Below are positions 23,363-27,716 of a DNA stretch of 64,000 nucleotides, one piece after another. The stretch is from the NCBI GenBank assembly GCA_016841205.1, contig JAENZP010000002.1, positions 248,001 to 312,000 of the forward strand. Reading direction: 5' to 3'. Below the pieces are notes generated by a model. It was given only the letters and a program-made list of their open reading frames with translations, made no database searches and had not been told where the DNA came from. The stretch is from Desulfoscipio geothermicus. Its GTDB lineage: Bacteria > Bacillota > Desulfotomaculia > Desulfotomaculales > Desulfallaceae. Position 1 is the first letter of the stretch. Every line of letters starts with the position of its first letter. Position numbers and translations under genes: made by a program.

Positions 23363-24475
23363 TTGGAAATAATCCAAAATAACAATCAACCGGAAATATT
23401 ACTGGTAGAAGATACACCGGAACATATTGAAGCGGTTGTAGCGATACTACAAAAAAACAATTACAAAATAAGAATTGCCAACAAATGGAGTACTGCTTTA
23501 AAACTACTAAGTCAGCACCAACCGGATTTAATTTTATTGGATATTTTTATGCCTGAAATGGATGGTTTTGAACTGTGTAAAACCATTAAAAGAAACAGCG
23601 CTTTTTGTAGTATTCCCATTATTTTTTTAACTGCCCGGGATGATGAAGATAGCATCCGGAAGGGGTTCGAACTGGGAGCACAGGATTACGTGATTAAGCC
23701 CTTCAACGCCTCCGAACTGCTGGCCCGTATAAAAACACATATTAAACTAAAGCAGCAAACCGAATCACTTAAAGAAGCAAATCGCGAATTGGACAGCTTT
23801 TGCTATACTATAGCTCACGATTTAAAGGCCCCTTTGCTGTCAATTAATAAGCTTATTGAATATCTTGTTGCAGATTATGGACATGAATTAAACAGTGAAG
23901 GCCAGGAACTGGCTACTATTATTCAGGAAAAATCCCTGGAAGTCATTGCTGTGATAGATCACTTGCTTGAGCTTTCCAAGATGTGTGAAATGCCTATGCA
24001 AAATGAAGTTATAAAACTGGAGCATTTGTTCCTTGATGTGTATAATGAGCTTGTTCAGCTGCAAGATCAACGGCAAGTGGAATTAAATCTTAAACCTTTG
24101 CCTGATATAAACGGCGATCCCGTAATGATGAGGATGCTTATCTCGAATATACTTTCGAATGCATTAAAATATACGCGAACCAGACAAGTTGCCACGATTG
24201 ATGTTAGCTTTAGCGAGAACGAAAACGAATACACTTTCGCGGTGAGGGATAATGGCGTAGGGTTCGATATGCGTTATTCGGCCCGGCTTTTTGGTGTATT
24301 TCAAAGACTCCATTCGCAAAAAGAGTTTGAAGGTTCAGGCGTAGGGCTTGCAATATGCCAGAAAATACTTAAAAGGCATTACGGCCAAGCCTGGATGATT
24401 GGCGAAGTTGATAAAGGCGCAACTTTTTATTTTACTTTTCCGAAGCAAGCAGTATGTACCGCAACAACATCGTGA
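23363..24475 (+). CDS. Receiver-histidine kinase fusion (cytoplasmic)
   Basis: About 370 aa. An N-terminal receiver domain (ILLVEDTPEHIEAVV, LILLDIFMPEMDGFELC, YVIKPFNASELLARI) is joined to a HisKA domain (FCYTIAHDLKAPLLSINKL) and an ATPase domain (ISNILSNALKYTRT, VRDNGVGFD, GSGVGLAICQKILKRH). No membrane segment, so it acts in the cytoplasm, probably as a relay. The TTG at 23363 is chosen for GGAG eight bases upstream; upstream in-frame codons lack a site. It diverges from the hybrid kinase operon with which it may work. Confidence 0.9.
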   Translation: MEIIQNNNQPEILLVEDTPEHIEAVVAILQKNNYKIRIANKWSTALKLLSQHQPDLILLDIFMPEMDGFELCKTIKRNSAFCSIPIIFLTARDDEDSIRKGFELGAQDYVIKPFNASELLARIKTHIKLKQQTESLKEANRELDSFCYTIAHDLKAPLLSINKLIEYLVADYGHELNSEGQELATIIQEKSLEVIAVIDHLLELSKMCEMPMQNEVIKLEHLFLDVYNELVQLQDQRQVELNLKPLPDINGDPVMMRMLISNILSNALKYTRTRQVATIDVSFSENENEYTFAVRDNGVGFDMRYSARLFGVFQRLHSQKEFEGSGVGLAICQKILKRHYGQAWMIGEVDKGATFYFTFPKQAVCTATTS

Positions 24476-24486
24476 AGGAGTTACTG

Positions 24487-24716
24487 AATATTTAATTATA
24501 TAGTTGTTCGAAAAGGCCTTTTATGTATTGATTCTGACTCTTATTTATCTCTTTTAAGACTTCTATCCAGCCAAGCGATAACGATACTTTCTTAAGGAAA
24601 TCGTTTAAAACCGTATGCTTGAAACAGCCCACGAATCTTTACTTTGCATTGCCATTTCAATAAGTGCAACCCATATTAGCCAATATTTATCTTCCCGAAA
24701 AATATGCAATATATCG
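24487..24716. repeat. 230-bp direct repeat, copy A
   Basis: Identical to 25459-25688 at all but one position. Copy A begins 11 nt after the kinase stop. It corresponds to the last ~37 codons plus downstream sequence of the cyclase-like gene whose intact end lies in copy B, so A is a truncated duplicate. Confidence 0.9.
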
Positions 24717-24860
24717 TATCAACCAACCCAATGGGCATGCTTACCAAGTCTCACAACAACATGAGTAAAACCGGTATACCTTCCCAAACAGGGAAAACCT
24801 ATCTTTTCAGAGACTACCGCCTCACTAACGTTTTTAAGCAGGTAAACATAAATATAAAGC

Positions 24861-25214
24861 TTAGCTTATCCTGTTAACTTCCAGGGTTGGATACCCTTTC
24901 CAATTTGTCAGGTTTATCTTAATTATTTTCGCTGAGCCAAAGTACCCCTTTGGAGTGTAAGCTATAATACCGTCAGACAGAAATTCATTATAATCTTCAG
25001 GAACTTGTGGCTTACCTGTATGCACGACAGGCTCACTGACACCACAACCTCAGCCAATACCTAAAGGTTCAAATCCCATGATAATGGATCCGTCTCTGGC
25101 AAAAATATATGCCTTAGCGTCTTCCGAAATTTCAAACTTGATGGTTTTAGGCGAATCACTAGACGCCGATTTACTTACCGTCGCATTATTGATGTCAGGG
25201 TTAATTACAAACAT
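24861..25214 (-). CDS. Probable selenoprotein, CC/Se-motif (HesB-related) type, in-frame UGA
   Basis: Reading through the TGA at 25050-25052 gives one continuous protein of about 117 aa. Before it: FEISEDAKAYIFARDGSI and GFEPLGIG. After it: GCGVSEPVVHTGKP, then DGIIAYTPKGYFG and LTNWKGYPTLEVNRIS. This order (ISxxAxxYI, U/C-rich glycine motif, PxVxxGKP, DGIxxY, final LEV) matches my memory of the CC/Se motif family, where Sec replaces a Cys. A hairpin of SECIS shape follows the TGA. The start at 25214 has AGGGGAG upstream; the ATG at 25244 is the alternative. Function unknown, likely redox or Fe-S. Confidence 0.72.
25012..25046 (-). promoter_or_regulatory. Putative bacterial SECIS hairpin
   Basis: Just after the TGA on the minus strand, TGTGG can pair with CCACA and, inside it, CCTGT with ACAGG around the loop CGTGCAT. 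A U/G-containing apical loop about 20-30 nt after UGA is the known bacterial SECIS arrangement for SelB. Folding was done by eye. Confidence 0.5.
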
Positions 25215-25359
25215 TTTAACCATCTCCCCTGGTTTAATTTTCATTAGTATACCCTTTCAGCTAGAACCCTTCAATAACATTGTCACAATATTGTTCATGA
25301 CCCAAGTATAGGCCCGGAGGTTAACCCTGCGCAACAAACTTTCACAATTCAAGGGGTCA

Positions 25360-25429
25360 GGTATAGGGGTCAGACCTTGACATTTGACACTGAACTGCGT
25401 GTCAAATGTCAAGGTCTGACCCCTATACC
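25360..25429. repeat. Large perfect palindrome (REP-like)
   Basis: Arms 25360-25390 and 25399-25429 (31 bp, starting ggtataggggtcagacc) are exact reverse complements with an 8-nt loop. The ggggtcagaccttgacatt theme is typical of REP elements spread by RAYT-type (REP-associated tyrosine) transposases. No transposase gene is in the window. Confidence 0.8.
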
Positions 25430-25458: not shown

Positions 25459-25688
25459 AATATTTAATTATATAGTTGTTCGAAAAGGCCTTTTATGTAT
25501 TGATTCTGACTCTTATTTATCTCTTTTAAGACTTCTATCCAGCCAAGCGATAACGATACTTTCTTAAGGAAATCGTTTAAAACCGTATGCTTGAAACAGC
25601 CCACGAATCTTTACTTTGCATTGCCATTTCAATAAGTGCAACCCATATTAGCCAATATTTATCTTCCCGAAAAATGTGCAATATATCG
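25459..25688. repeat. 230-bp direct repeat, copy B
   Basis: Copy B of the repeat also at 24487-24716 (one mismatch). It covers the 3' end of the cyclase-like gene and 118 nt beyond its stop. Confidence 0.9.
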
Positions 25689-26416
25689 GAAAACAATTCA
25701 GAAGGTCTAGTAGCCTCAAAGAATTTTGAGTAACTTAAAAGACCAATTCTAAGAGTGCCAATGTGTTGAAGCATGTGTTCATCAGTAGCATTATTATCAA
25801 TTACTAATTTAATAGCAATATCAATTAGTTCTTCAATCTCTCGTTTTTGATCGTCATCTTCTTTTGATAGATCAGAGTACCATAATGCATCTTTGTATTG
25901 ATATCTACTCCAAAATTCAATTGAATCATCATTATATAAAATGGTTCGTATATTCTGGTTCCAGGTGAATTCAATATCCTCACCATTATCTAAATTGACA
26001 GCTACCAGGAGACGACTACCTTTAACACCACTTTCCATTTTAACTGAATGAACTAAAGCAGGACTAACAATAAATTCGTTTTTAATATTAGAAGCTACTG
26101 TTCTAGGCTCAATATTTACTACTCCGATCGAAATCCCTCCGCGTGGTAATAGAAAATATCGTTCTCTTTCCGTATACCGCGCATTCATTCGTAAGCATTC
26201 ACGATATAACTGGCAAACAGTGTCTAGCATTAAGGACTTATCATCACTATATGCAATTAATGAATCCGAAAAAAGAGTTCCTGTTATCTCCGGATTTTTA
26301 TGTATTAATTTATAAGCTATATTGTAGAAGTCATCGAGAACATCCTTTGCCCTATTATAGTCATACCTTACCATGTTACTAAACCCTAAAAGGTCCAAAA
26401 ACGCCAAGGCCTTCAC
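25577..26416 (-). CDS. Cyclase-fold-like protein, unknown function
   Basis: About 279 aa. KALAFLDLLGFSNMV, then GTLFSDSLIAYSDD and LPRGGISIG follow the beta-strand and Asp pattern of class III nucleotide cyclases: an Asp in FLD, a second acidic run in FSDS, and RGGIS. The C-terminal half is helical. Similar stand-alone cyclase-like proteins occur in genomic islands; whether this one makes a cyclic nucleotide is unknown. GTG at 26416 is chosen for GGGAGGG nine bases upstream; the ATG at 26434 lacks a site. Its 3' end is duplicated at 24487-24716. Confidence 0.7.
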   Translation of the reverse strand: MKALAFLDLLGFSNMVRYDYNRAKDVLDDFYNIAYKLIHKNPEITGTLFSDSLIAYSDDKSLMLDTVCQLYRECLRMNARYTERERYFLLPRGGISIGVVNIEPRTVASNIKNEFIVSPALVHSVKMESGVKGSRLLVAVNLDNGEDIEFTWNQNIRTILYNDDSIEFWSRYQYKDALWYSDLSKEDDDQKREIEELIDIAIKLVIDNNATDEHMLQHIGTLRIGLLSYSKFFEATRPSELFSDILHIFREDKYWLIWVALIEMAMQSKDSWAVSSIRF

Positions 26417-26636
26417 AATTAATGTCCCTCCCATATAACCTGCTTTTTAATCTATTAGAGCAACCGTCTTTGGCAATAACATCTGGCCATTACCGTATAA
26501 AGGCACATCCGCTTTCTCAAAATGCTGGGGGTAACGTCGTCAACTCATTTATATTACCAATCGGCGCCAGAACTGTCTTAGAGCCATTATCCATTAAAAG
26601 TGTAACTTTAATATTAATTCAAAACACCCCGTTATC

Positions 26637-27647: not shown

Positions 27648-27705
27648 AAAGTGCTACCTTTTATTTTACTTTTCAGAAGCAAGCAGTATGTGCCGCAACA
27701 ACATT
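27648..27705 (+). pseudogene. Remnant of a kinase-gene 3' end
   Basis: About 55 bases (ending gtgccgcaacaacat) match the last codons of the kinase at 24415-24470 with about eight differences. It is a relic of a second copy of that gene, placed end-to-end with the HAD-YbaK gene. Confidence 0.6.
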
Positions 27706-27716
27706 CAGAAGATAGA

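What the first reader, a model, noticed from the sequence alone, without database searches (positions are those of the whole stretch)
24861..25244. In-frame UGA gene that looks like a CC/Se-motif selenoprotein, with a SECIS-like hairpin
Seen: reading through TGA at 25050-25052 joins two frames into one coherent small protein whose C-terminal half (GKP, DGI, LEV pattern) continues smoothly for 62 codons. A two-stem hairpin (TGTGG/CCACA, CCTGT/ACAGG, loop CGTGCAT) begins right after the TGA. Known: the CC/Se family has Sec or Cys at this site, and Sec decoding in bacteria uses a hairpin 3' of UGA. Inference: this is a Sec codon and automated callers would truncate the gene.
Basis: partly seen in the sequence, partly recalled or inferred. 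Interest (0 to 1): 0.85.

Follow-up and report, generated by a model that had tools for sequence, protein, structure and literature searches.

The report
Small selenoprotein with IscA-like fold
A small gene in an anaerobic bacterium uses a TGA 'stop' codon to encode selenocysteine; it belongs to a selenoprotein family already catalogued but functionally unknown, and its predicted shape resembles iron-sulfur carrier proteins, which gives the family a testable role.

Summary
The finding is real. The gene is on the minus strand (25244 to 24861). It reads through TGA 25052-25050 (codon 65) and gives a 127-residue protein. That protein scores above the curated cut-off of NCBIfam NF041239, 'CC/Se motif family (seleno)protein' (52.7 vs 40 bits).

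Three congeneric genomes keep TGA at the same codon. Distant homologues have Sec or Cys there. The 62 codons after TGA are under purifying selection (dN/dS 0.10-0.25). The apical hairpin 25032-25014 meets all published bSECIS criteria, is paired in 97% of cells over 28 distinct Sec genes with compensatory changes, and decays in non-Sec homologues. The genome has selA, selB, tRNA-Sec(UCA) and selD.

So this is a new member of a known family. The addition here is a fold: AlphaFold models of two members match IscA/SufA/DsrR-type proteins and nothing else at Z 5 or more. Sec lies in the loop where IscA carries its first ligand cysteine; the C-terminal CxC of A-type carriers is absent. Most likely it is a small redox or metal-thiolate protein using Sec65 and Cys67. 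Function and Sec insertion are not shown experimentally.

The parts
24861..25244 (-). Selenoprotein gene, NF041239 family: 127 codons plus TAA (24863-24861), read through TGA at codon 65
25050..25052 (-). In-frame TGA, inferred selenocysteine codon (Sec65)
   Evidence: TGA at the same codon in three congeners, Cys codon in homologues
25044..25046 (-). Codon of Cys67, the only cysteine of the protein besides Sec65 (U-G-C motif)
25014..25032 (-). Upper stem-loop of the bacterial SECIS: 6 bp, 7-nt loop CGUGCAU (25026-25020), G in loop position 2 followed by U, 23 nt between TGA and loop
   Evidence: criteria in PMC13188914
25005..25047 (-). Lower stem of the window's own fold (25047-25041 with 25011-25005); not conserved in the family
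25245..25281 (-). Conserved upstream stretch with Shine-Dalgarno-like GAAAGGG (25258-25252); end of the homology block shared by congeners

Best explanation
This is a selenoprotein gene. Ribosomes decode UGA 25052-25050 as selenocysteine with SelB, tRNA-Sec(UCA) and the stem-loop at 25032-25014, giving a 127-residue protein of the CC/Se motif family (NF041239). The confidence below is for this part. Inferred from models: the protein has an IscA/HesB-type fold, with Sec65 in the loop between the second and third strands, where IscA has its first ligand cysteine. Inferred, less certain: Sec65 and Cys67 act as a redox pair (reversible selenenylsulfide) or bind a thiophilic metal or Fe-S cluster in an anaerobic cytoplasm. 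I put the redox role at about 0.45 and the metal or cluster role at about 0.35.
For: Family hit above cut-off across the TGA. Sec/Cys exchange at one column, at least 90% C/U in 38 members. At least 4 Sec/non-Sec changes on the tree. Purifying selection after TGA. bSECIS pairs 97% kept with C-G/U-A and G-C/A-U swaps, decayed in non-Sec homologues, where one pair is kept in only 32%. Complete sel machinery. Fold: top matches IscA Z 9.7 and SufA Z 9.4 for the window protein, IscA Z 9.4 for a distant member, with only IscA/HesB-type chains at Z 5 or more.
Against: No experiment shows Sec insertion. Sequence profiles do not link the family to Fe-S_biosyn (no Pfam hit), and hhalign to HesB-like proteins is weak (probability 5.6%). 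Foldseek E-values are modest (4e-4) and TM-scores are about 0.5. No conserved gene neighbour points to a function. The partner cysteine moves within the family (+2, +3, -3 or absent).
Confidence: 0.95

Rival explanations
1. The gene is a pseudogene: TGA is an ordinary nonsense mutation and only the 64-residue N-terminal piece, or nothing, is made.
For: The table-11 ORF ends at TGA. Broken-looking paralogues do exist in this genome (L041 has TAA in the N-terminal part).
Against: TGA is kept at the same codon in four genomes with dN/dS 0.10-0.25 after it. There is a covarying SECIS. Sec/Cys exchange occurs across the family.
Confidence: 0.02
2. UGA is read through as another residue (for example Trp), or bypassed, rather than decoded as Sec.
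For: One homologue (L054) has TGG with the hairpin intact.
Against: The aligned residue is otherwise nearly always Cys. The genome has dedicated Sec machinery including tRNA-Sec(UCA). The hairpin fits bSECIS rules.
Confidence: 0.02
3. On function, within the Sec reading: the protein is a true A-type Fe-S carrier (IscA/SufA/ErpA-like) in which Sec65 is a cluster ligand.
For: Fold matches and Sec in the loop of the IscA first ligand. The HesB-like family is a known Sec-containing parallel (PMC1794560; PMC13188914).
Against: No C-terminal CxC; Cys67 is the only other cysteine. No Pfam or NCBIfam Fe-S assembly hit.
Confidence: 0.3

Closest known systems
NCBIfam NF041239, CC/Se motif family (seleno)protein (listed in PMC13188914 as a hypothetical protein predicted in Moorella thermoacetica)
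   Same: Profile hit over cut-off spanning the TGA; Sec or Cys at the same column; same SECIS position in the members compared
   Different: The review lists the motif CxxU; this protein has U-x-C (Gly at -3), and an N-terminal extension of about 33 residues
HesB-like selenoprotein (TIGR01911, motif UxGP)
   Same: Same predicted fold class; Sec in the corresponding loop (the weak hhalign alignment pairs the two sites)
   Different: Not hit by TIGR01911 or PF01521; different residues around Sec; no clear sequence relationship
IscA / SufA / DsrR (solved structures 1r94, 1s98, 2d2a, 2k4z)
   Same: Fold, Z 8.4-9.7 by predicted models
   Different: About 10% identity; lacks the C-terminal CxC cluster ligands of IscA

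Membership tests
NF041239 CC/Se motif family | Score over the curated cut-off of 40 bits | tested here: met
   52.7 bits, E 3.5e-14, residues 35-121
NF041239 CC/Se motif family | Sec or Cys at the conserved site | tested here: met
   Column of C65 is C/U in at least 90% of 38 members
NF041239 CC/Se motif family | CxxU motif as printed in the 2026 review | tested here: not met
   Window has G-I-G-U-G-C, i.e. UxC; many members above the cut-off also lack CxxU, so I do not take it as defining
Bacterial selenoprotein gene | In-frame UGA aligned with Cys in homologues | tested here: met
Bacterial selenoprotein gene | bSECIS: loop 3-9 nt, stem 4-16 bp, G in first two loop positions, 16-37 nt from UGA, MFE -7.5 kcal/mol or lower | tested here: met
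   7-nt loop CGUGCAU, 6 bp, G at 2, 23 nt, -17.9 kcal/mol
Bacterial selenoprotein gene | selA, selB, selC, selD in the genome | tested here: met
Bacterial selenoprotein gene | Selenium incorporation shown | not testable with these tools
   needs 75Se labelling or mass spectrometry
A-type Fe-S carrier (IscA/SufA/HesB, PF01521) | Fold | tested here: met
   Predicted models only: Z 9.7 and 9.4 to IscA
A-type Fe-S carrier (IscA/SufA/HesB, PF01521) | Profile hit to PF01521, TIGR00049 or TIGR01911 | tested here: not met
   No such hit; TIGR01911 finds nothing in this genome
A-type Fe-S carrier (IscA/SufA/HesB, PF01521) | Three ligand cysteines (loop Cys plus C-terminal CxC) | tested here: not met
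   Only Sec65 and Cys67 in the protein
A-type Fe-S carrier (IscA/SufA/HesB, PF01521) | Fe-S cluster binding and transfer | not testable with these tools
   biochemistry needed

The most novel reading that the evidence does not exclude
The CC/Se motif family is an unrecognised IscA/HesB-fold branch in which selenocysteine replaces the first cluster-ligand cysteine and the C-terminal ligands are lost. That would be a second, sequence-distinct set of selenium-dependent A-type-like carriers or sensors, used by the Desulfotomaculum group and relatives.
Probability: 0.3. Interest if true: 0.55.

Novelty: new member of a known kind. Interest (0 to 1): 0.32.

Why it matters
It confirms a selenoprotein that a standard-code ORF caller would cut in half. 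It gives a functionally blank selenoprotein family a fold hypothesis that biochemistry can test. The Sec and Cys copies in the same genus (one genome, Sporotomaculum syntrophicum, has both) are natural pairs for asking why selenium is used.

Tried and rejected
Several homologues were listed with TAA or TAG 'inside', which could have meant recoded stops at the Sec site. Codon-level checks of those fetched show that none of them lies at the site; those located are upstream of it. Rfam gave only chance matches. A sequence search of solved structures found no relative. The selA distribution was tested as a correlate of the TGA form but is nearly universal in the class (107 of 113), so it is consistent but uninformative. 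No plasmid record matches. Gene neighbourhood gave no function. The lower SECIS stem was tested and dropped as a general feature.

Full report
What is there. The gene lies on the minus strand, 25244 to 24861. Read by table 11 it ends after 64 codons at TGA 25052-25050. Read through, it gives MKIKPGEMVKMFVINPDINNATVSKSASSDSPKTIKFEISEDAKAYIFARDGSIIMGFEPLGIG-U-GCGVSEPVVHTGKPQVPEDYNEFLSDGIIAYTPKGYFGSAKIIKINLTNWKGYPTLEVNRIS, with TAA at 24863-24861. The start is ATG 25244, conserved in all orthologues and preceded by GAAAGGG. ATG 25214 is an alternative but is ATT in one orthologue.

Family. The protein hits NCBIfam NF041239 'CC/Se motif family (seleno)protein' at 52.7 bits against a cut-off of 40. 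It has no Pfam family. The same family is found in 45 of 113 genomes of the class. The nearest orthologues are in three genomes of the same genus: two MAGs named Desulfoscipio geothermicus and Sporotomaculum syntrophicum FB. All have TGA at codon 65, at 79-87% identity. S. syntrophicum also carries a Cys copy (L043, TGT at the site) that branches with the Sec orthologues with full support. Across 64 distinct members, 36 are Sec and 28 not, with six changes of state by parsimony and at least four forced by well-supported branches.

Evidence that the part after TGA is translated. Pairwise dN/dS between the four orthologues is 0.10-0.25 for codons 66-127, lower than for codons 1-64 in every pair.

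SECIS. The window RNA folds at -17.9 kcal/mol, z -1.93, which alone is modest. Comparison is decisive. In 28 distinct Sec sequences the six-pair upper stem (window 25032-25014) is formed in 97% of cells, with pair 26-34 as C-G in 19 and U-A in 8, and pair 25-35 as G-C in 25 and A-U in 2. For the two stems together, partners slid by one to three columns pair in at most 39% of cells, against 71% in register. In non-Sec homologues the same upper stem decays, with one pair kept in only 32%. A few non-Sec copies, and one with TGG at the site (L054), still carry a near-intact or intact hairpin, as expected of recent loss of Sec. The stem also leaves a mark on the protein: Val-Val-x-Thr (GTC..ACA) alternates with Ala-Val-x-Ala (GCC..GCA) in most members, so that the pair is kept. 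The published bSECIS limits (PMC13188914) are all met.

Machinery. The genome (3.38 Mb, 99.9% complete) has selA followed by selB, tRNA-Sec with anticodon UCA and selD, which itself has an in-frame TGA in a TPG-U-AAK motif. The class genomes for which a TGA form was listed have selA, but selA is nearly universal there.

Fold and mechanism. An AlphaFold model of the window protein (mean pLDDT 75.7; the N-terminal 32 residues are poorly modelled, most of the rest is high) matches SufA and IscA in Foldseek (best E 4e-4). With VIA-align it matches IscA at Z 9.7 over 87 residues, then SufA, DsrR and other HesB-type chains; unrelated chains fall to Z 3.9 and below. A second model, of a distant 94-residue member, gives the same list (IscA Z 9.4). 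Both models were built on overlapping sets of family members, so they are not fully independent. Sec65 lies in the loop between strands 53-61 and 69-76. From what I know of IscA, that is the loop of its first ligand cysteine, Cys35; no residue-level superposition was available here. The weak profile alignment to HesB-like selenoproteins also pairs the two sites. The protein has no C-terminal CxC, so it is not filed as an A-type carrier. The nearby cysteine is at +2 here, and at +3, -3 or absent in others. The mechanism is inferred: a selenol at a loop of an IscA-like fold, used for redox chemistry with Cys67 or for binding a thiophilic metal or cluster.

Context. The homology shared with congeners is about 440 bp (24843-25281), and none of the flanking sequence is shared in the stretches compared, so the gene travels or is retained as a lone unit. 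In the window it sits between two identical 230-bp direct repeats, 24487-24716 and 25459-25688, found nowhere else in the genome.

Verdict. Observation confirmed, interpretation supported, new member of a known family. The fold hypothesis is the only part that adds to what I found in the literature: the one paper held that names NF041239 lists it as a hypothetical protein.

Noticed in passing
24487-24716 and 25459-25688: Perfect 230-bp direct repeat flanking the selenoprotein gene; the second copy overlaps the 3' end of ORF 25577-26434. Found only at these two places in the genome.
   Followed up: partly
25360-25429: Perfect 31-bp inverted repeat with an 8-nt spacer (GGTATAGGGGTCAGACCTTGACATTTGACAC), possibly a mobile-element end or terminator-like element.
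   Followed up: no
24414-24477 and 27648-27711: The 3' end of the response regulator/kinase gene is repeated 3.2 kb away at 86% identity, a sign of rearrangement in this region.
   Followed up: no
L040 (G000:C13:266846-267208): Second Sec-type paralogue in the same genome with U-A-S-W in place of the U-A-S/G-C of its relatives: the partner cysteine is lost but TGA and hairpin are kept.
   Followed up: partly
L041 and L042 (G000:C13, about 28-32 kb): Two Cys-type paralogues in the same genome that look broken: TAA in the N-terminal part of L041, frame disruptions in L042.
   Followed up: partly
L054 (G107:C28): Homologue with TGG (Trp) at the Sec site and an intact SECIS hairpin, apparently a recent loss of Sec.
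   Followed up: partly
L101-L113: HesB-related TIGR01911 hits (all with TGA) occur in 12 other genomes of the order, none of which is among the genomes with an NF041239 hit.
   Followed up: no
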